From: Brugia malayi
Lineage: Eukaryota > Nematoda > Chromadorea > Rhabditida > Onchocercidae
Assembly (NCBI RefSeq): GCF_000002995.4
Contig: NW_025062477.1
Span: 12,754,696-12,818,695, forward strand
DNA: 64,000 nucleotides
Direction: 5' to 3'
The notes under the pieces are model-generated. The model worked only from the letters and a program-made list of their open reading frames with translations, searched no databases and was not told the origin of the DNA. Made by a program: the position numbers and the translations under genes. Positions within the stretch are counted from its first letter, which is position 1. Each line of letters begins with the position of its first letter. Positions 4,306 through 17,568 of this stretch are shown here, piece by piece.

Positions 4306-5240
4306 ATAAAATTAGCAAATTTACCAAATATCCCGCAAGTATAAAATACGTGACGTAACCATTATTTACTTTTTATGAAAAAATACCAAGTTCCAATGTA
4401 TGCACAGTCTAATACTAACTATGCTAATCATTAAACATCCCATACTTTCTTCTGTTATAATTCTGATTTAAGAAAGAAATGACAAGAAAAAAAAATGACG
4501 AAAATGAACATCCATGATAGTATTTCCGTGCATTCTCCCGCATTCATGAAGATATATACTTTTGAAGATATATACTTTTATTTCTGCGGAATTTTTTTCG
4601 ATTACTTGTTTTGTTATTCGATCGAGATTGCTATCATATATTAAGTGATAGATGTAGTGATCTCCAGTGATGATTTCAGATTTACTGTATGATGGTTTCC
4701 TTTTTCATTGAAAATTTTATTTCATCAATTGCTGATTTGTTTCTAATTTGTAAGCAAACCGAATGTTGATTCAAAACTTGCAAATATTTTCTTCCTTGAA
4801 TATTAAATATACATTTATACTTTTAATACTCATTCCTAATTAGTTCTTGCTGCTGAATTTTACTTTTAGTTTTCAATGTTTGTATACTGCTATCAAGTTC
4901 AAATTTTTATTATTTTTTGACTTCATACGTTTCTGTTACCAAATGAAATGAGTCTCACAGCAATTTGTTATCATTATTATGTTAAACTTTTCAAATATCC
5001 ATTGTAATAAATCAACCGATGAAGAATTTACATTAAAGCGTGTTTTCATTTCACAATTTGTGATCTTTCGTAAGCTATTTGAAATGAATTTGCATTCATT
5101 CGTACTATCTCCATTAAACGCTTAGATACAATAAGTCGTCCTTGGTATTTATCTAAAAGTCATTATTTTTTGTTTTTATTGTTGGAAAAAAAAAGGTTAA
5201 AATCTTTTCAACATTTATCACATCCTAACTGCAAACACAA

Positions 5241-5868
5241 TCTTATCTAATCTTATTAATGTATCACTGTATTGTATTTTGGTGTCTTCATGTAAGTTTT
5301 ATCAGTTTTAGATTATTATCGTTTAAAAAATGAAGTCTAAGGAATAGAGGTCAACCAATAGATATCGCGTATTTACAGGAGGGAATAGAAGTCATTTATT
5401 AAAAATGAAGAAAAAAACAAATGCAATTTTGTTGATTGCTGTCCTTCCTCATTTAATAAATCTAATAAAAAAAATTATTTTAGAATGTGTATAACTATAT
5501 TATATATATGTAATCATCTAACTAAAATATTTAAGAAAATAACTAAAGTAACTAAAACATATATTTTTCTAAAACCTTTTTAGAATAAATTTTTACTGTT
5601 TGAAAAAGACAATATAAAATTAATAGATTTTATATTGTCTTTTTCACAATGATGATAGCTTATAAATTATAAAAAAAAACTTAAAACTTAAATTATAACG
5701 ATGTGACTACGAAGATGTAACTTCTGCTTTTAAATCATTAAATGATGTAGCAATCTCGAATTACTCGAACAAATAATAGATTATCTTATCTAATCTTATT
5801 AATGTATCACTGTATTGTATTTTGGTGTCTTCATGTAAGTTTTATCAATTTTAGATTATCATCGCTTA
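5241..5868. repeat. Segment flanked by 85-bp direct repeats
   Basis: 5241-5325 and 5784-5868 are near-identical direct repeats (three mismatches by eye), both containing CACTGTATTGTATTTTGGTG. The roughly 460 bp between them hold a dispersed repeat (5347-5465) and a perfect hairpin (5601-5646). This looks like a small non-autonomous element or a tandem duplication with an insertion; no transposase is seen. Confidence 0.6.
5601..5646. repeat. Perfect 20-bp-stem inverted repeat, 6-nt loop
   Basis: Stem arms 5601-5620 and 5627-5646 are exact reverse complements; the left arm begins TGAAAAAGACAATATAAAAT. The loop is TAATAG at 5621-5626. There is no mismatch in the stem. Confidence 0.85.
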
Positions 5869-6117
5869 CACAACGGTCGTAATTCAGCTATAGCATTGCA
5901 TTACAAAAGAAAGTGTAAATTATATGAAATTTATTAAAATGTAATAATTCTGAATAAAATAAAATGTTCATTTAAAAATCAAACAAAACAACTTTGTATA
6001 TTGCACAAAGCATAAAGTAACAAGTGGAGTGACCAATGAATTTTCAAAAATAACGTACAGATGCTCAATATGCACAAAATACTAGATAAGCAAATCAATA
6101 TAAATATAGCATTTAAT

Positions 6118-7087
6118 TTAATTATTATTTAAATACATTTCGTCCTCAACCTCGATGCATTCCCTCTCTTCCAGGCCTATACCTTGCTTCATGAATTGGT
6201 CCATTGCACAGGATGAAATCGGTTCCACTTTCGTCCTATAAAATTTATCAATGATCTGAACAATCTTCATTAATTAATTCAAGCTGTCACGGAAAATAAC
6301 ATTAAAAACTATTATATTTGAATATAATCAAATAATTCCTACCACATTTGGATCAGGAACAAAAGCATAAGTTGGTGAATGTGAATTGCAACACTCTTCA
6401 TTGATAATTTCCTCAATCATCCGCAAAGCTTTGCGGATATTATGCTCATATCCGTTGATTGTGAACGTGGAACTCTGAAATCGGCGTGGTAACATGAATT
6501 CTGTTTCAGTTTGGAACGCTATTAGAAGCGCCCGTTGATCCTCCACTCCAAGCAATAAATCGATCAGTTCAGTGGGGATCCTAAATAATGGAAATAGATT
6601 CAAATGACTGAAATTTGATTTTGAAACACTGCAAAATAGATGAAATTAGACTAAAACTTTTATTCACCTGAAACTTACGGCAGCTAATGTTGAGCATTCT
6701 ATTTCCTGCTGCCGTTTTTGTTCCTCATAGCGAATCCGTTCCGCTATAAGGCGTGTTACTAAACTGGAATCCTCCTCCGATTGGAGTATCATTTCAATTT
6801 GTTGCGGAGAAGACTCAGTTTTCTGCTGCTAGAAAGATTAATATTACATTTGAATTTCATTGCCCGAGAAAACCAATAATGTAGCATACAATGAAATCTA
6901 AGTTTTAAAAACATTTTCATTCCAGAAATTCCAATGCATATGGATTTGTATATTGGTTAAGAAATTAATTTAGATGATAACAGTGGAATAAGTCGAAGAG
7001 AGAAAAAAAAATTTAATTCTATAAACTTACTCGGAGATGCTCCTCCATACTTTTTTGAAATTTTGAAAAATTGAGTGAAATACTCAT
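6118..7087 (-). CDS. Small KH-like domain protein, four exons
   Basis: Not recognised as a named gene. Exons: 7087-7031, 6828-6668, 6580-6343, 6255-6118 (594 nt, 197 aa); all phases join. It starts MSISLNFSKFQKSMEEHLR. Residues 20-70 are Gln/Glu-rich and probably helical. Residues 71-140 follow the type I KH pattern: IPTELIDLLLG, then FQTETEFMLP, TFTINGYEHNIRKAL and MIEEIINEE. The loop that should read GxxG with basic residues reads GVED (84-87), so nucleic-acid binding may be weak or lost. The acidic tail ends EVEDEMYLNNN. A different acceptor at 6236 for exon 4 gives a shorter end (stop at 6146) and is less convincing. An RNA-related role is inferred from the KH resemblance only. Confidence 0.6.
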
Positions 7088-7103
7088 TGTTTCCAACGGA
7101 CTG
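7088..7103 (-). promoter_or_regulatory. Putative trans-splice acceptor of the KH-like gene
   Basis: TATTTTTCAG on the minus strand is followed by a 13-nt leader and the ATG at 7087. No upstream coding exon fits, which suggests spliced-leader addition. Confidence 0.5.
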
Positions 7104-8199
7104 AAAAATAAAGTATATGATTCTTTTATGTTTTATTTCTAACTGAACAGAAAATAGTGATAAAAATAATTTGGGAAATAGGTCCTACAGATAATTTAAA
7201 GCGATCGCCATATTACTTCAGAGATTTCAAAAGAAAGCAATTTTTGGGCATAAATGGAGAGAGATTAAGACGATGTCGACTTTGTATGCAATCTTTTTGA
7301 CAATGACAAGTTGAAGAGTGAAAGTGCGTTTATATACTTCTAAATAGGCTCTGATTGACCTCATCAACACTGTGTTCTTTGTTGACTTCATCAGTTTTAT
7401 GGATTAACTGAGGTGTGGGCGGGTCTCTTTGAAGATACCTCTGCTTCGGTTACTTTCCTTCCCAAAAGTTTTTGTTTCGACAAAGAAAGAAAATCTAAAC
7501 ATTTTATAATTTGCGATTGCAAGAGATTGCACAAATTGATTGCAACTTAGAAGCAATCTTGTTGAGTCACTCAAAATTTACTACGCAAAAATTATTCAAA
7601 ATTTTAACGAATTTATCTTACATACTTATTTCAATGTCGCATACTCTGCGAATATTGCACTGTTTTCGATTCGTACAGAAATAATTTATGATCCATCTAT
7701 TGGCATATAATAAAAATTCCCCTGCACTCTTCATATATTTTTTTATAATTATCATCAGCATATAATGAAGCAAAATGACCACTATAAATAGTAAAAAGAA
7801 ATAAGAATGATGCAATTAAGTGATAATAAGAATCATTTGAATTTAAAAATTATACTTCTTAACCATTTAAATAAACCAATATTTGGTAATATTCTGTTGT
7901 TTGCAACTTAATTGTTCTTTATAATTTCATACCACAAAAAATTTATCTTTTAAAGTATATGAAATGCCTTCAAAAGAATGTACCGAAGTGTTTCATTTTT
8001 TTCTTTCACAGTAAAAGCATTCAATTTTATGTATAATCGATCGAATTGGCGCTCAATCATTAATTTGCGGTTACAATTAAAACTGTTGAAATAGATTCCC
8101 ACCACATATTTCGTAACTTCTATTTAAATTTAAATAGAATGAAGGGGTCAACCAACAACGTACTTTGTTATTCGGGGTCAATTACAACATATCTCTGAA
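7104..8199. other. Intergenic, nothing further seen
   Basis: AT-rich. It includes the likely promoter side of the KH-like gene (about 7200-7450). GGGGTCAACCAAC near 8145 is a diverged partial copy of the repeat at 8200. Confidence 0.4.
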
Positions 8200-8326
8200 G
8201 AGGTCAACCAATAGATATCGCGCATTTACAGGAGGGAATAGAAGTCATTTCATTTATTAAAAATGACAGAAAAAAACAAATGCAATTTTGTTGATTGCTG
8301 TCCTTCCTCATCTAATAAAAGTAAAC
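8200..8326 (+). repeat. Dispersed repeat, second copy of 5347-5465
   Basis: Starts GAGGTCAACCAATAGATATC and continues through TTGTTGATTGCTGTCCTTCC; about 120 bp match 5347-5465 with a few changes and small indels. A 13-nt start of the same motif recurs at 63938. The short frame over this copy is broken by an indel in the other copy, so it is not treated as a gene. Confidence 0.7.
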
Positions 8327-8552
8327 AGATTATATTGATAGGAAAAGTATATAGTGGTATAGCTAATATTATACTGATAAACTTATCCACCATAACTAGC
8401 ATATATTTATCATTATGTTTATCTGTTCAATATTTTCAAATTCAGCAGGCATTCATACTCGAACTTCAATATATTTAATGTATCCAATGATGGAAGCCAT
8501 TCTGCATTCAAAAATTTTTAAACGAACTCTGATGGTCAATACATCTCACAAT

Positions 8553-9598
8553 TGTATTGTTCGAAAGCATGACAAACAAAATTGGATTGATATTATCATC
8601 ACAAAAGCTAATTAATTACAAGGATAATATTAGAAAGCAAACAAAGATTTCTACCAATCTGAAATTTTAATTTGAAAGAATTAATAAGCTTAATTTCGAA
8701 TGATGCCAAAAAAGCGAAAATTTTATGAATAACTCTTTTGTTACATCTGGATTTCTTAAGCCTTAACAAGTGCTAATAAAACAGTTGGGATTAGCTCGGA
8801 TTGCTTGAATAAAACAGTTCTTTCAAATGAAGAAATATTTTTGGATTATAATGACAAGGTTTAAAAAAGTTATGAAAAAAGACTGAAAGTTTAGAGCATT
8901 ATAATGTGTAACCATGCAAGTTGGCAGTTAATTATTGTTAATTATTTTAAGAAGTGATTCAGTAGTAGGAAGACGGTGTAAGTGAGCCTTCACTACATGA
9001 AGAGAAGTGTGCTCAACAAATTAAAACTGAAGCGATTTAATGATAGCAAATCGACACCACATTAAAAAAATTCCCATTTAATCATTGTTTGTTTCGATGT
9101 GTTAATCAGTGTGTTTAAAAAAAAATTCCAGATGAAATCGAACTGATAATTAAAAGAGTAATTTTCACTGATAAAAAAATCAATAATCGTTTCACTTTGC
9201 TGTAAATTCTCTTGAAATAACGAATATTTAAGTAAAGAAACTACTCGCAGCAATTTTGTACGATAATAAACAATGATGAAAGTTAGTTTTTTTTGTGAAC
9301 AATAATATGATCATCCTTTAATGGTATTTTATTAATGAAATTTAGTGATGTGTATATTTTAATTAGATTAGAAGCGATGACATTGGTACGTTACGTAAAG
9401 CAGACAACTTCGTTCTCATTTCCTGTTGAGATGGAAACATTACTGAAATTTACCATAAAGTATACCAAACTGCGACGTACAAAGCGCTATTCCATTTCAC
9501 ATTTATTAAAATCTCACTAACACTTACGCAAAAATTTCCGAACTTTTTAGCACTTAAATGATTCTTAGAAAAAAAAATAAATAGTTGGATGAAATTTA
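8553..9598. repeat. Left arm of 1.05-kb inverted repeat
   Basis: This is the reverse complement of 13680-14735. Comparing line by line I found three substitutions and two homopolymer length differences (9 vs 10, and 9 vs 18). The outer edge begins TGTATTGTTCGAAAGCATGA. The inner edge coincides with the TAA stop codon of the neighbouring secreted-protein gene. No target-site duplication is visible at the outer ends. A 61-codon frame (9335-9520) is present in both arms. Confidence 0.9.
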
Positions 9599-10407
9599 TA
9601 GATATTGAAGAGGTGGACAATTCCAAAAAGCTCGCGGTGTACAGTATGCGTAGTTGCGGATTTTACTCGCTGGACCGAGATCAGTCATCCGCTCAATAAT
9701 GCATGCTCTCAGAACTGAATCACAATAACAGCCCTTTTCTCTGAATATTATTTCATTAAATTTCACAGCTTCTTCTATAATTCTTATCAGGAATTGAAGA
9801 AAATTTTAAATTTAATCTGTTTCTAACTTGTTTTTCATTGACTTTGAACTATTTATATACAAACAACTAACGTCCAATGCTGATTTCTTTTCAAGCGACA
9901 CCAATAAATAGGTTCCCGCATATCATAACAGTCAGCATGGGAGGTACACAGTTTCTGTCTAAAATGAATGCTCAAAAGTTTTCAGAAGTTTTGTCAAAGT
10001 TTCGAATAAAATGGAAAACTTTTACAATATATCTTAAATGAATAAATGATTTGGTAGTGACATGAAAAATGCTTACATCCCATCAGTGTTTATGAATGTT
10101 GCACCGTAATAATTTCTTGGCATTTTATTGTCAAGACTGTACGTATTGTCCTGAAAAACTTCATATAAATCGTTCAGGAAAAGGATCATTGATTGGAAAT
10201 TTTATTCTTTCTGTCTCTAAAAGATAAATCTTAAACGGCAATATCATATCAATGAATTGTCAAACAAAAAATACTCCTTTGATAAATTGCAGTTATAAAA
10301 ATCAATCAATATTGCTATATTTCAATACTCACCAAATTTAGTATTTGCAATTTTGTAACCTGAAAGGTTAAGCTGAACACAAGCAGAAGTTCGATTAAGA
10401 TTTTCAT
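9596..10407 (-). CDS. Secreted cysteine-rich protein, paralog 1
   Basis: Exons 10407-10333, 10150-10077, 9958-9872, 9740-9596 (75+74+87+145 = 381 nt, 126 aa). An N-terminal signal peptide (MKILIELLLVFSLTF) precedes a domain with eight Cys: CTSHADCY, then REPIYWCRL, EKGCYCDS, ACIIER, YAYC and WNCPP. Aromatic residues Y29 and Y39 occupy positions that are Cys in paralog 3. Exon lengths and phases are identical to paralog 2, and the proteins share about 63% of residues. The architecture recalls small secreted larval antigens of filariae such as the ALT family; I could not check this. Transcribed away from paralog 2 across a 2.3-kb spacer. Confidence 0.8.
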
Positions 10408-10415
10408 AGAAACTG
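10408..10415 (-). promoter_or_regulatory. Putative trans-splice acceptor, paralog 1
   Basis: AATTACAG then a 5-nt leader (TTTCT) precede the ATG. The arrangement is the same as at paralog 2. Confidence 0.5.
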
Positions 10416-12699
10416 TAATTTAAGAATTCGTATTCGTATTAATTTTCTTTCTAATAAATAAGACGTTCACATAATTAGCTCCATAATAAAGATATGATCC
10501 ATCGGAATACTTATCTATCTCATTTTTCACACTGCTGTGAAATGATGAACATTAAGAATTCTTTACCTTCAATTTTTCAATCTTAGTACTATTTTCACCA
10601 GATGGTACCAAAAATTGAATACATTATTTTGATACGACCAGTAAAATAAACCATTCAAACAATCATTTTTTCTAGTACCTCGAATAATCGATTCTAACAC
10701 ATACTGAAAACGTTTCTGATTGACAAACTGTATAAAATTTTAGCCGTTTTCACATTGCTATAATATTGCAAAATTTCTGTTTTATTACATTTTTTGAATT
10801 ATTATTTCGTATTCAAACCATTTTCATTTGCATAATATTAGCTGTAACTGTTAAGAGACAAGGGAATTTCAAATTTTTGTAAAATCAACAAATTTTAAAA
10901 TATATCAAACTATTTCTGAGTCACTTTTTTCAAGAAATTGTAATCTATTTAATAATATATCTTGTCACTGTCGTTAAAATAAGTTAAACCAGAACCAGAA
11001 ATTATTGAATCAACTGCTTACGGTTTTTTCATTCTATCCTTAGTGCATAAGTTTATTGCTTCTTGTGTATGTTTACCTTTAAAAAACAAAATTTGATGAA
11101 TTTAGATGAAATTCTGTTTAAGCTAACTTTTGACATATTCCGATATTAGTTTTCGGTCAATTCCTCAAGTCTTCAGCTTATAAATTTACATTAGTATTTG
11201 TCAGCAGATTTTCACGTTGAAAAAGCATTGGAATTCGAAATCAGAATTGAAGTTTACTTTTGCCCTTTTATTGTTGATTTTTCAATTTTTATTTATTACA
11301 GATCACTAGAGTGTAAAAACAAAAAAGGAAGAAAGCTTTCGAAGTTCAACGAAAAAGCCAACTTAATCAGTGTACATTTCAAGTCTTTTATCAGTCAGAT
11401 ATGACAATAACAATTTTATGAAATTAAGAAAGGTAATTTTTTCATGTCGTTGAAACGTTTAAGAAAATCCGAAAATATTAATTAAAATGATTGAAATCAA
11501 AAATATTAGCTATGTATCTGAAATAATGAAATATTTGAAAATTCATTGTGCCAAATATTCATCTTTGCTTAAAAGAATAGCAAATTTTGGGACAAATGTT
11601 AAAATGACTTATATATAGTTGATGAAGAAGATAACCAAGGATAGAAATATAGAAAGAAATCATTAGTAGGTTTATTTGATCCACCTCATTTTATTGGAAA
11701 GTAAAGAAATAAAAATAATGATATCAAATTTTTTAACAATCTCGAGATAAATATGAAAACGGTGAAATTTATTTTTTACATTCAGCATTTCGAAGATTTG
11801 TAACTTTGAATCAATTTATTCTTCAAAAACATAAAATTGAACATGCATGAATTTCAGTCTTTTCATTCTACATAAAATTTTTTTGTTTTATATGAATTTC
11901 AATTTGTTGATTTTACTTGCATGAAAGTTGTTGGTAAAATGATAAATAAGGATTGATAATTCATGCTTAAGACAAATTTAAAAAACTATCAATTTAAAAA
12001 GTTTTCAAAACGTAAATTTAGTTCTGGTTGATTTAGTTTTAGATGAATAATTTTCGTTGAAAAGATTTCAATCCATAAAAAGTCAGTAAAGTTTTTGAAA
12101 CACAAATAATCGCACACGATACCTGCACACAATTAAAGTTTTTGTTTTGTAGATACTTTTGACAAAAATTCAGCAATGGATTCCAGTATCCAAAAGAAAG
12201 AGAGTCAGGAATAGTCTTATTTGGAGTAAAATTTGTCATCTTTTGAAAGGTTTTACAATTTATTTATTTATTTGCTTATCCTCAGTTATATGTATGGCAC
12301 GTGAAGTTGACTGATATAATATAAAAGAATATTCCATAAATATAATAAAAGTGCTGCAATGTTATTGCAGTGTTGTTGTTGCATAAAAAAGATTTAAGGA
12401 GCCGTCAATCAGAAATGTTTTCAGTGACTGTTAGCAGAGATTGTCAAAGGTAAGTTATGTTACATTGATTGGTAAGCACAAATACCATTTATTCCGCTTT
12501 GTACTTAAAATAATTTATTCACAATTTCTGGTAATATAAGTTTTAAAGACTCGTCATTTCACAATCGTACAAAATAAAAAAAGATAAAAAGAAAAACAAA
12601 TAGTTCAAATATTTCGAATGTACACTATTGCTACACGAACTAACTAATTATGTGAATGAATATTTTCGTTAACAGAAAGAAAATTAACATAAATTCTCA
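10416..12699. other. Shared intergenic spacer between divergent paralogs
   Basis: The spacer must hold the promoters of both genes. About 150-200 bp next to each start is recognisably homologous in inverted orientation (CTAATTATGTGAA, then AGAAAGAAAATTAA and the acceptor), but far more diverged than the downstream arms. The middle shows no gene. Confidence 0.5.
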
Positions 12700-12707
12700 A
12701 ATTATAG
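12700..12707 (+). promoter_or_regulatory. Putative trans-splice acceptor, paralog 2
   Basis: AATTATAG plus the 5-nt leader GTTCT precede the ATG at 12713, matching paralog 1 in position. Confidence 0.5.
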
Positions 12708-12712
12708 GTTCT

Positions 12713-13682
12713 ATGAAAATTCTATTCCAATTTCTACTTGTCTTTAGCCTCTGTCTTCTCATTGCTGCATTGCGAAAAATCAATATGGTAAGTTACAATA
12801 GTTAATTTATCGATAAATATCATTAAAGAAGTATTGTTGGCTTGCTAATAAGTTTGAAACTTACATTTTAAAAGAAAAAGCGTAAAATTTTTAATTGATA
12901 TTTCTCATTCTCTCTCTCCCTCTTTCCCTCTGATTCTTCATATCGAATGAGACAGAAGCATTGTAGGCTGTCACATTCAGTCCTGATAATGAGATGCCAG
13001 CAAATTATTACGGTGCAACATTCATAAACACCGATGGAATGTAAGCATTTTTCATGCCACTGCCAAACATTTATGCTTACAGTTAAAGTATATAATAAAA
13101 GTTTTTCAAATTTTTAACGCTTTAAAAAATTTCAAACATTTATTTTAGATTAGAGTCGTGCACTTCCAATGCTGATTGTTACAATATGCGAGAGCCAATT
13201 TTTTGGTGTCGCTTGGCCGAAATTCAAGACTGGACGTTAGTTATTGCAATATTCAAATTTAAACAAAAATCAAAAAAAAAAAATTTACTTTAATTCAATA
13301 GATAAGATTTTTCCCATTTAGAAAAGTTGTAACACACTTTTTATCCTTCTTTCTTGTGCTATCAAAAAACGAATAATTTGAAATGTCTTTTGGGCTCAAA
13401 TTTCTTTAATAATTTTTCTTAACTGAATGTTTGATATGATTTGCCCATTTATCCATCTCAACAAATATTCCGTTTCCACTTCAAATTAAATAATAATTAT
13501 GTCAAATCAAATGAAAAATTAGTTAAATTTTATTTAGTGACAAAGGGTGCTATTGTGATTCGGTCGTGAAAGCATGCATCATTGAACGGATAACTAAACT
13601 CGGTCCGATAACTGTGATCCGGAACTATGCACTCTGTACCTGGAAAGAATTGTGGGAATGTCCACCTTTTAAAAATACATAA
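12713..13682 (+). CDS. Secreted cysteine-rich protein, paralog 2
   Basis: Exons 12713-12787, 12967-13040, 13149-13235, 13538-13682 (75+74+87+145 nt, 126 aa), with GT/AG ends and matching phases throughout. The signal peptide begins MKILFQFLLVFSLCLLIAA. The mature part has eight Cys: CTSNADCY, REPIFWCRL, DKGCYCDS, ACIIER, YALC, WECPP. F29 and Y39 stand where paralog 3 has Cys. It differs from paralog 1 mainly in the signal peptide, the acidic/basic loop before exon 4, and the last 15 residues. Secretion is predicted from the signal peptide; the biochemical role is unknown. Confidence 0.8.
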
Positions 13683-14735
13683 ATTTCATCCAACTATTTA
13701 TTTTTTTTTTTTTTTTTTCTAAGAATCATTTAAGTGCTAAAAAGTTCGGAAATTTTTGCGTAAGTGTTAGTGAGATTTTAATAAATGTGAAATGGAATAG
13801 CGCTTTGTACGTCGCAGTTTGGTATACTTTATGGTAAATTTCAGTAATGTTTCCATCTCAACAGGAAATGAGAACGAAGTTGTCTGCTTTACGTAACGTA
13901 CCAATGTCATCGCTTCTAATCTAATTAAAATATACACATAACTAAATTTCATTAATAAAATACCATTAAAGGATGATCATATTATTGTTCACAAAAAAAA
14001 CTAACTTTCATCATTGTTTATTATCGTACAAAATTGCTGCGAGTAGTTTCTTTACTTAAATATTCGTTATTTCAAGAGAATTTACAGCAAAGTGAAACGA
14101 TTATTGATTTTTTTATCAGTGAAAATTACTCTTTTAATTATCAGTTCGATTTCATCTGGAATTTTTTTTTTAAACACACTGATTAACACATCGAAACAAA
14201 CAATGATTAAATGGGAATTTTTTTAATGTGGTGTCGATTTGCTATCATTAAATCGCTTCAGTTTTAATTTGTTGAGCACACTTCTCTTCATGTAGTGAAG
14301 GCTCACTTACACCGTCTTCCTACTACTGAATCACTTCTTAAAATAATTAACAATAATTAACTGCCAACTTGCATGGTTACACATTATAATGCTCTAAACT
14401 TTCAGTCTTTTTTCATAACTTTTTTAAACCTTGTCATTATAATCCAAAAATATTTCTTCATTTGAAAGAACTGTTTTATTCAAGCAATCCGAGCTAATCC
14501 CAACTGTTTTATTAGCACTTGTTAAGGCTTAAGAAATCCAGATGTAACAAAAGAGCTATTCATAAAATTTTCGCTTTTTTGGCATCATTCGAAATTAAGC
14601 TTGTTAATTCTTTCAAATTAAAATTTCAGATTGGTAGAAATCTTTGTTTGCTTTCTAATATTATCCTTGTAATTAATTAGCTTTTGTGATGATAATATCA
14701 ATCCAATTTTGTTTGTCATGCTTTCGAACAATACA
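13680..14735. repeat. Right arm of 1.05-kb inverted repeat
   Basis: Partner of 8553-9598. It begins at the TAA stop of paralog 2, so both mRNAs should carry the same 3' sequence in the same sense. It contains a poly-T run of 18 near 13701 (9 in the partner) and an AATAAA about 270 nt after the stop. Confidence 0.9.
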
Positions 14736-15908
14736 TTTTATCCGGAATTATTAAATTGAATTTAGCATTTATATTAACCAATTTCATCCTATCTTCAACA
14801 CTTATTTTTGCTTTTTAATTTTTTAAACATTTCAAAAAACATTTTAACTTTATTCCTGCTGAATGTATGCAAAACTCTAAAACATATTGAAATTTAATTG
14901 AAAATAATATTAATACAATCAAATCATTTCGATCTTACAAATTTGATCATCATTTGATCATCGTTGCATTATTGTTAAGCATCTCTTTTATTGATTTTAC
15001 TAAATGATAATTTACTGATAATTTTTTCATTATTCGAGAAAAAAATCATTTTCATTTACTGATAAATAATCGCTGCTAAGTAAATCTAAGATGTATATGA
15101 CTGGAAATTAAATTGGAATAAAGTGAACATAGGATTCATGAAATACAATTATATTACTTGCAGTTTAATAAACCTTTTTACAACTTTATAGGGTTGGTTT
15201 TTTTTTTTTTTTTTTTTTTGTCAATTCAAAGCAACTGAATGTTATAATTAAAGAAAATGCTGAAATAGAAAGCTTAAAATGATTTACTTAACCAGTTTAA
15301 AAAAAAAAAAGTTTCATATTAATGTGTTTGATTCAGTCAAATGAGAAATGGCAAAAAAAATCATACTTATATATTTATTTCAAATAAATTTCTGTTGTCA
15401 TAATAAAAGTTCAAAGTATGCATGAATGAATAAAATTTGAATTTAATTGACTTATCAGTTGCAAAAAGTTCACACAATGCAACTACTATACTTCAATCTC
15501 GATATGAATGAATGTTCGATCTCGACTCAATCTCGATGTGAATGAATGAATGAATGAATCCTTCCTTGAATATTCAAAGGAAGGTGGAATGAATAATAGT
15601 GAAAACTTTGAATATTAAAAAAAAAAATGTTAAAATGTTTTTTTCTAGAAATTATGTTTAAATTTTAGAGAAATTATAAAATCTACATCAGAATTATGTC
15701 TTTGTTTGAAAGTATTTTTTCTCTATTTGCAAATTCATGAAATATTTATTACGAAATAAAGAAAGAAACAATGGAATAAATATTAAAATAATGGGAAATG
15801 GTATGAATAATTTGAATTTGAATACAATGACAATTGGAATAATTTAAAAAAGACTATTATTTGGCAGTATTTTTTGAGGTTTCATAGATGAAAAGATGAA
15901 ATAATTTA
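14736..15908. other. Intergenic, AT-rich, short GAAT repeats
   Basis: No gene seen. It contains a (T)n run near 15198 and a short GAAT tandem near 15540. Confidence 0.5.
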
Positions 15909-17568
15909 TTAAGGACAGTACCAATTGAACGCTGAACGACAATGAGTGTATTCCAAACGACCGTATGATTGACGATTAATTATGCATGAATGAAGTTTTA
16001 AATCACAATGACAACCATCTTTCCTGCAAACAAATTATTTATATAATTATTTGAATAATTATTAAATAACATAAATTCAAAAAAAAAAAAAAAAAAACAA
16101 AGTATATATATTATAATATTCAATTCAAATAACTGTTTGAATTAAAATATCACTTGATTATTTGTAAGCAAAAAAAAAAAAAACAAAATTTCAACTTTTA
16201 GAATAGAAAATTCTGAAATCTTTTAGAGCAATAGCTACTTTAAAGAATTATTTTGCTCATTATAATGCTTGCATACATTTTATATAAATGCTTACAAATA
16301 ATCAAAGATTTTAAAACAATTATTTGTTGATTCACCGAAGTAACAAAAAAAAAATTTATTTGCGTCATAATTTCATTTGAGGATCTATAAAAATTCACAT
16401 CCATTTTTGTTCAGGATTAGGTCGACACCAAAGTATTGGTTCCCGATAGTCATAGCAATCTTTATGCTCGATACATTGCTGTATTCTGGAACAATTTTTA
16501 GTCATACTGGAAGAAAACTCAATTCAAATGATTTTAAATTTCAATTTTTGTCCAGAAATGTAAAATACTCCCAATTTTTCCAAGAAAAAAAATTTTTAAA
16601 AACTTTAAAATTTTTCAAAATTCAAATTTTATAAGCAAAGACTTGAAGAAAAAAAAATATTAACTAAAATCTCAAATTTTTTTTCTATAAGCCTAAGCCA
16701 GCTAATGTGAACTATTGAAACCAAACAGTCTTGTCTATTTTATCAAGTCAGAATACATTCTAAAATTGATATATGATATATTATCGTTAATATTTGCACT
16801 GCTGTGTTAAGTTTTTATCAGAGAAAAGTCTAATTTCTTTACTTTATTTTCTTACAAATTTGAAATTTTTAATTCTTTTAGACAAAATTTGTTATGAACA
16901 GACTTTCCATCAGTTTGAACGAAATATGCTCCAATACAATCAGTGTTTGGATCATCACTTGATTTACAGTGTGATGTCTGAAAGTATTAAAATCTCATTT
17001 GCTCTTATCAAATGCCAATTCCTTTTGTTTTCATCATCCGATCAGTGTCATTTCAATGATTGATGTTGTTGATGGAAAAAACTTAGAAAAGATTTTGAAA
17101 ATAATATTTTGAAACCTACAAATCCGTAAAAATGCCTTTTACCCTCTTCAATTAATTTATTAAAATATAGCATTAGCACAAAGGAAGAAAAAAAAAACAA
17201 AAAACAAAGTGTAGTAGTAAAAATTATCACACCATTTATATTCTTAAAATTTTAATATATTTTATTGAAAAGTTTCAGTTTGTTATTGGAAATAAAATAA
17301 GACTTTGAAGAGTTATTTTTTGAAAATAGAATTTTTAAAGAATATTCAGCAGATTAGCAGCAAAATATTTCCTTCTGTTTCTTTTTGGATAAAATAATGA
17401 ATAAAATTTGTTTAAAATGCTTATGATAAAAAGAAAGAATGAAAAACGAAATCACCAAAAATAATAATTTGTTATATTTATCGTTAAAAAATTATAAAAA
17501 CTAACTGAACTGCCAAATGAAGAATGTGTGAAACACAAAGTAACAACTAATATGAGCAATGACCACAT
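15909..17568 (-). CDS. Secreted cysteine-rich protein, paralog 3 (10 Cys)
   Basis: Exons 17568-17506, 16977-16904, 16485-16399, 16023-15909 (63+74+87+115 = 339 nt, 112 aa). Exons 2 and 3 have exactly the lengths and phases of paralogs 1 and 2. The signal peptide is MWSLLILVVTLCFTHSSFG. Mature motifs are SHCKSSDDPNTDC, QQCIEHKDCYDYREPILWC, KDGCHCDLKLHSCIINR, YTHC and WYCP-stop. C25 and C35 are additional to the eight Cys of the other two. The C-terminal loop and tail are shorter. Exon 1 was chosen for its clean ATG, signal peptide and phase-0 GTTAGT donor; it lies 528 nt upstream of exon 2, further than in the paralogs, so it is the least certain part. Confidence 0.7.

What the first reader, a model, noticed from the sequence alone, without database searches (positions are those of the whole stretch)
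8553..14735. Inverted repeat arms nearly identical, enclosed paralogs diverged
The 1.05-kb arms differ at three bases plus two homopolymer lengths, yet the two genes between them encode proteins only about 63% identical, and their upstream DNA is more diverged still. Non-coding DNA would normally diverge faster than exons. The arms begin exactly at both TAA codons. Recent gene conversion limited to the arms, or diversifying selection on the coding part, are the main explanations; an assembly duplication must be excluded.
Basis: seen in the sequence. Interest (0 to 1): 0.8.

Follow-up and report, generated by a model that had tools for sequence, protein, structure and literature searches.

The report
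Recently copied flanks beside old genes
In a filarial worm, two old, clearly different sister genes carry an almost identical kilobase of DNA just after each stop codon, most likely because one gene's downstream DNA was recently copied onto the other's, as is known for gene pairs in other animals.

Summary
Two head-to-head four-exon genes, A (+) and B (-), encode 126-aa Chromadorea ALT (PF05535) proteins, 79/126 identical. From one base before each TAA outward, 1,056 and 1,046 bp differ by 3 substitutions and 2 homopolymer lengths, while exon 4 is 71.7% identical. Between the genes dS is 1.03 and dN/dS 0.245: the genes are old and diversifying selection is not the cause. Loa loa has an A-like and a B-like protein; 9 aligned sites fit a duplication before the Brugia/Loa split, 2 fit a later one, but trees are weak. 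So the arms were made alike recently. Both edges are abrupt, and arm B's outer edge is the exact junction with repeat DNA whose relatives lie 650 kb away. I favour one recent templated copy of one gene's 3' flank onto the other; recurrent gene conversion stopped at the coding edge by selection is the main rival. Precedents exist in Caenorhabditis and primate opsins. Assembly error was not excluded: no reads or relatives' DNA were available.

The parts
12713..13682 (+). gene A, ALT-family protein, exons 12713-12787, 12967-13040, 13149-13235, 13538-13682 (stop 13680-13682)
   Evidence: splice sites and translation; 100% identical over 126 aa to Brugia record P0001 'Bm1202', which is 145 aa with 19 more residues at its start; Pfam PF05535 E 2.7e-32
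9596..10407 (-). gene B, ALT-family paralog, exons 10407-10333, 10150-10077, 9958-9872, 9740-9596
   Evidence: 99% identical to B. pahangi P0004; PF05535 E 3.4e-37
13680..14735 (+). arm A: stop codon and 3' flank of gene A, 1,056 nt
8553..9598 (-). arm B: stop codon and 3' flank of gene B, 1,046 nt, 3 substitutions and 2 homopolymer lengths from arm A
10408..12712 (.). spacer between the divergent genes with diverged 5' flanks; 10411-12700 found only itself in the genome search
8554..8555 (.). junction: repeat DNA to the left ends and arm homology begins
4573..8554 (.). mosaic of repeat or segmentally duplicated DNA, parts of which have 91-99% relatives near C137:12.097-12.113 Mb
13951..14489 (+). 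part of the arm with one more relative in the genome, C137:2286436-2287065, about 76% identical; the ALT protein search had no hit there
15909..16986 (-). third ALT-like gene; stretches like exons 4, 3 and 2 seen in order

Best explanation
Two events of different age. An old inverted duplication, probably older than the Brugia/Loa split, made the head-to-head ALT genes A and B, which then diverged under purifying selection. Much later about 1.05 kb of 3' flank of one gene was copied in inverted orientation onto the end of the other. Most likely this was one ectopic repair or template-switch event between the inverted paralogs, replacing the old flank. Shown: the age contrast, the two abrupt edges, the junction with repeat DNA outside arm B. 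Inferred: copying as the mechanism, a single event; the direction is not known.
For: Arms about 0.3-0.4% diverged against dS 1.03 between the genes. Sites of the ortholog type 9, within-species 2, cross 0, from Brugia A/B and the two Loa proteins; Brugia A+B as one clade gives p-AU 0.040 with 12 rows. Edges abrupt: the last exon mismatch is 2 nt before TAA, then no substitution for 257 nt, though the 9-T length difference lies in that stretch. Arm B's outer edge is where the window departs from repeat copy L041, with 2 shared bases (TG) to arm A. A rough model that ignores indels gives P(no substitution in the first 257 nt) 0.37 for one copy and 0.06-0.22 for recurrent conversion.
Against: The inner edge falling within 2 nt of the stop codon is a coincidence under a single random break. 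The edge model is rough and does not decide. With outgroups added (17 rows) the clade test weakens to p-AU 0.098 and most forks are weak; holding the two Loa proteins together is not rejected either (p-AU 0.131). The repeat left of arm B is 1.6% (last 254 bp) to about 9% diverged from its relative L041, more than the arms, so it need not belong to the same event. No DNA of a related species was available.
Confidence: 0.5

Rival explanations
1. The arms are as old as the genes and are homogenised again and again by gene conversion. Conversions that run into the coding exons are lost because the two proteins must stay different.
For: Inverted paralogs with arms kept alike are described in Caenorhabditis, including a C. 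briggsae pair 100% identical for 297 nt and 59.6% overall (PMC1803023). Opsin exon 5 diverges between converted introns (PMC3924837 passages). It explains best why the edge is at the stop codon. In D. immitis the two relatives are 28/29 identical in exon 3 but 17/25 in exon 2 and 37/47 in exon 4, which may mean conversion in this family or an independent duplication (they form one clade at 95/90).
Against: No ragged zone of intermediate divergence at the inner edge; introns and 5' flank show no homogenisation; GC of the arms is not raised (27.9 and 28.1%; arm A at the 61st percentile of 1,050-bp windows).
Confidence: 0.3
2. Assembly artefact: one real arm was placed twice, or B's true 3' flank was lost.
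For: The DNA left of arm B is repetitive. The published assembly was built from PacBio contigs with manual grafting and automated gap filling, and chromosome 3 has the most gap bases in Table 1 (152,426) (PMC7181701 passages).
Against: The arms differ at 3 bases and 2 homopolymers. PacBio DNA was sheared to 20 kb, longer than the 6.2-kb locus. There are no N in the window, and the arm search found no further near-identical copy.
Confidence: 0.13
3. Recent duplication of the whole unit followed by diversifying selection on the proteins.
For: Would explain similar arms with different proteins; diversifying selection was reported for ALT-2 of Loa loa and Wuchereria, purifying selection for B. malayi and Onchocerca (PMC4758719 passages).
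Against: dS 1.03, dN/dS 0.245, diverged introns and 5' flank; an A-like and a B-like protein in Loa.
Confidence: 0.03
4. The arms are functional non-coding sequence kept identical by purifying selection.
For: Both mRNAs would carry the same 3' end in sense; AATAAA at +98 and +272 (A), +89 and +263 (B).
Against: The one other relative found has diverged to 75.5% with 97 gap columns; no Rfam match in the window at gathering scores. A step from 28% divergence to none at one base is not how constraint usually behaves.
Confidence: 0.03

Closest known systems
Long inverted repeats of paralogous gene pairs in Caenorhabditis (Zhao et al. 2007, PMC1803023; parts 1 and 2 of 4 read)
   Same: Nematode, inverted paralogs, arms up to 100% alike; in C. 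briggsae CBG13231/CBG13232 one part is kept alike while the rest diverged
   Different: There the arms lie between the genes or include coding DNA and the structure is often shared by species; here the arms lie outside, begin at the stop codons and hold no coding exon of the pair, and conservation of the structure is untested
Primate L/M opsin genes: converted introns beside diverged exon 5 (PMC3924837, passages read)
   Same: Non-coding parts more alike than the neighbouring coding part of a duplicate pair
   Different: There the gene pair as a whole is highly similar; here coding synonymous sites are strongly diverged and introns are diverged too
Recent partial duplication, the caution of Katju and Bergthorsson (PMC3966223, passages read)
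   Same: High identity that stops abruptly can mean a limited recent duplication rather than conversion
   Different: The cases in the passages are alike ORFs with diverged flanks; this is the reverse
ALT genes on B. malayi chromosome 2 (this genome)
   Same: Inverted copies of ALT loci with about 97-99% identity
   Different: In the three inverted pairs I saw, coding and flanks are alike together

Membership tests
Chromadorea ALT family (PF05535) | Score above the Pfam gathering cut-off over the domain | tested here: met
   A 111.3 bits, B 127 bits, cut-off 25
Actively maintained inverted repeats of nematode paralogs | Inverted paralogous genes with near-identical arms | tested here: met
Actively maintained inverted repeats of nematode paralogs | Same structure in related species, arms more alike within than between species | not testable with these tools
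   no DNA of other filariae held
Interlocus gene conversion with selection for coding difference (opsin type) | Duplication older than the similarity of the converted part | tested here: met
   dS 1.03 against 3 substitutions per 1,046 nt; 9 against 2 sites for the older split, clade tests weak
Interlocus gene conversion with selection for coding difference (opsin type) | Selection keeps the coding parts different | tested here: inconclusive
   dN/dS 0.245 over the whole gene; no branch or site test without relatives' DNA
Interlocus gene conversion with selection for coding difference (opsin type) | Residual divergence near tract edges | tested here: inconclusive
   no substitution seen near the inner edge; P 0.06-0.22 under a rough model
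Inverted-repeat transposable element | Many dispersed copies of arms with the same ends | tested here: not met
   13500-14700 found at its two places in the window and one partial 76% relative; the search skips very common words

The most novel reading that the evidence does not exclude
The stop codon is a selected barrier to gene conversion: across filarial evolution the shared 3' flanks are repeatedly homogenised to give both ALT mRNAs one common 3' end, while every conversion entering the coding exons is removed, leaving a one-base-sharp edge.
Probability: 0.12. Interest if true: 0.6.

Novelty: new member of a known kind. Interest (0 to 1): 0.35.

Why it matters
It is a compact natural case for separating recurrent gene conversion from a single templated copy, testable in sister filariae with near-complete genomes. 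It is practical too: the two ALT-like genes share a nearly indistinguishable kilobase downstream, so 3'-end reads or 3' probes may not tell their expression apart, and gene trees built from flanks would wrongly make them recent duplicates.

Tried and rejected
Diversifying selection: rejected on dS. Mobile inverted-repeat element: too few copies found. RNA gene in the arms: no Rfam match in the window at gathering scores. Coding gene in the arms: only short frames, the longest inside an arm 69 aa (only arm A's side was listed). GC-biased conversion: GC not raised. Old flank of gene B surviving elsewhere in the window: the arm finds only short matches of 22-31 bp outside. Polarising the three arm substitutions with the third relative failed: 13940, 14556 and 14603 lie outside the part it covers, 13951-14489. 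A base rate of such repeats from four 200-kb control blocks was planned and not obtained, so how common such arms are in this genome is not known. Papers: a search for Brugia malayi + abundant larval transcript + inverted repeat gave 0 papers. Brugia + gene conversion + paralogs gave 10, of which 8 were listed, none on these genes by title. Template switching + inverted duplication + microhomology + nematode gave 1, on centromeres. Gomez-Escobar 2002 on alt-1/alt-2 genomic environments is cited in PMC555940 (passages) but was not read; it may bear on this.

Full report
Where it is. The whole-genome search puts the window at C137:12754696-12818695 of an 86.8-Mb assembly in 139 contigs. C137 is 13,951,302 bp and C136 14,214,749 bp, exactly the sizes of chromosomes 3 and 2 of Brugia malayi in Table 1 of PMC7181701 (passages read). 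Gene A's protein is identical over its 126 residues to a Brugia record, P0001.

What is there. Gene A (+, 12713-13682) and gene B (-, 10407-9596) each have four exons of equal length (75, 74, 87, 145 nt) with GT/AG junctions and encode 126 residues. Of the Pfam families only Chromadorea ALT passes its cut-off. They are head to head with a 2.3-kb spacer that found only itself in the genome. The inverted repeat lies outside them, at their 3' ends.

The contrast. Exons are 65, 80, 70 and 72% identical. Over 78.7 synonymous and 299.3 nonsynonymous sites (Nei-Gojobori, own script), dS is 1.03, dN 0.252 and the ratio 0.245. Introns and 5' flank align poorly. The arms differ by 3 substitutions and two homopolymer lengths in 1,046-1,056 nt, plus one mismatch on the outer edge. 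In exon 4 the mismatches run to 2 nt before TAA (41 of 145); after the stop there is no substitution for 257 nt, though the 9-T length difference lies there.

Age of the genes. Protein searches found 9 and 11 proteins at E<=1 with queries A and B, and 18 at 1e-5 with an 11-row alignment, all listed with PF05535. Loa loa has two close ones, P0002 and P0006, both listed with a longest contig of 26,754 bases; that they share one contig is inferred from the equal length. P0006 lacks most of exon 1. Over aligned sites of the four Brugia and Loa proteins, 9 fit A=P0002 and B=P0006, 2 fit within-species pairs and 0 the cross. Trees group A with P0002 at 84/84, 82/84 and 87/86 and B with P0006 only weakly (48/38; unresolved). 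A single Brugia clade is disfavoured at p-AU 0.040 with 12 rows (P0001, identical to A, left out) and not rejected at 0.098 with 17 rows (five of the seven further proteins added, P0017 and P0018 left out). A clade of the two Loa proteins is not rejected either (p-AU 0.131). I read this as moderate support for a duplication before the Brugia/Loa split; the dS value stands without it.

The edges. Inside, the edge is one base before the stop codon. Outside, the window to the left of 8555 is repeat DNA: 7923-8554 matches L041 (C137:12.098 Mb, 91% overall and 250/254 in the last stretch), and both sequences part exactly at 8554/8555, where arm homology begins. L041 is the only relative found that reaches this edge, so it cannot be told whether the edge belongs to the repeat or to the junction. 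4573-5240 and 5804-8143 have relatives of 96 and 98.5% near there too. Arm A's outer neighbour, 14739-15880, found only itself. So the outer limit of homology is a rearrangement junction with two shared bases.

Choosing between mechanisms. Recurrent conversion within old arms should leave older differences near a boundary that tracts may not cross. My rough calculation, scaled to four substitutions and blind to indels, expects 1.5-2.8 substitutions in the first 257 nt under that model (P of none 0.06-0.22) and 0.98 (P 0.37) for a single even copy. This leans to one copy but does not decide. Recurrent conversion with loss of coding converts explains the stop-codon edge better. I give 0.5 to a single recent copy and 0.3 to recurrent conversion; together, recent copying between old inverted paralogs is about 0.8.

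Comparison. Other ALT loci of this genome were fetched: 10 stretches on C136 and one on C117, plus the third arm relative on C137. The comparison's printout was cut. In what was shown, C136:7494000-7513999 holds an inverted pair alike at 98.8% over 6.5 kb with the ALT matches inside, and a further copy at 7.24 Mb is 99.9% alike over 8.6 kb to one of them. The pair at 13.85/13.97 Mb is 98.2% alike over 1.7 and 1.1 kb and the pair at 13.53/13.65 Mb 96.5% over 7.4 kb. In these three inverted pairs genes and flanks are alike together; the window's pair is not like them. Published precedents are the Caenorhabditis inverted pairs, opsins and the caution about partial duplication.

Verdict. A real and tidy case of a known kind; assembly error is unlikely but untested; no new mechanism is required.

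Noticed in passing
window 15909-16986 (-): A third ALT-like gene (stretches like exons 4, 3 and 2; 43% identical to A in the exon-3 match) lies convergent to gene A, with arm A between them.
   Followed up: partly
window 4573-8554; C137:12097649-12112761: Mosaic repeat or segmental duplication with 91-99% relatives 650 kb away; the relative itself holds an inverted repeat of at least 1,290 bp at 99.9% with a 716-bp spacer (L039).
   Followed up: partly
L003 1501-2130 (C137:2286436-2287065): Lone 75.5% relative of the middle of the arms with no ALT hit there; nature unknown.
   Followed up: partly
P0007 and P0010 (Dirofilaria immitis): The two relatives are 28/29 identical in exon 3 but 17/25 in exon 2 and 37/47 in exon 4, a possible coding conversion or an independent duplication.
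   Followed up: partly
L034 (C117, 10,000 bases) and L028: The small contig C117 is 95% alike to the ALT cluster at C136:11.93 Mb over 5.2 kb, probably an unmerged haplotype.
   Followed up: no
P0010, P0006, P0009: ALT-family proteins named 'Nuclear pore complex protein' (one) and 'Phospholipase A(2)' (two) by their sources, likely annotation errors.
   Followed up: no
window 6328-6645 (-): Open frame of 105 aa inside the duplicated block with a sub-threshold KH_Vigilin match (E 0.035).
   Followed up: partly
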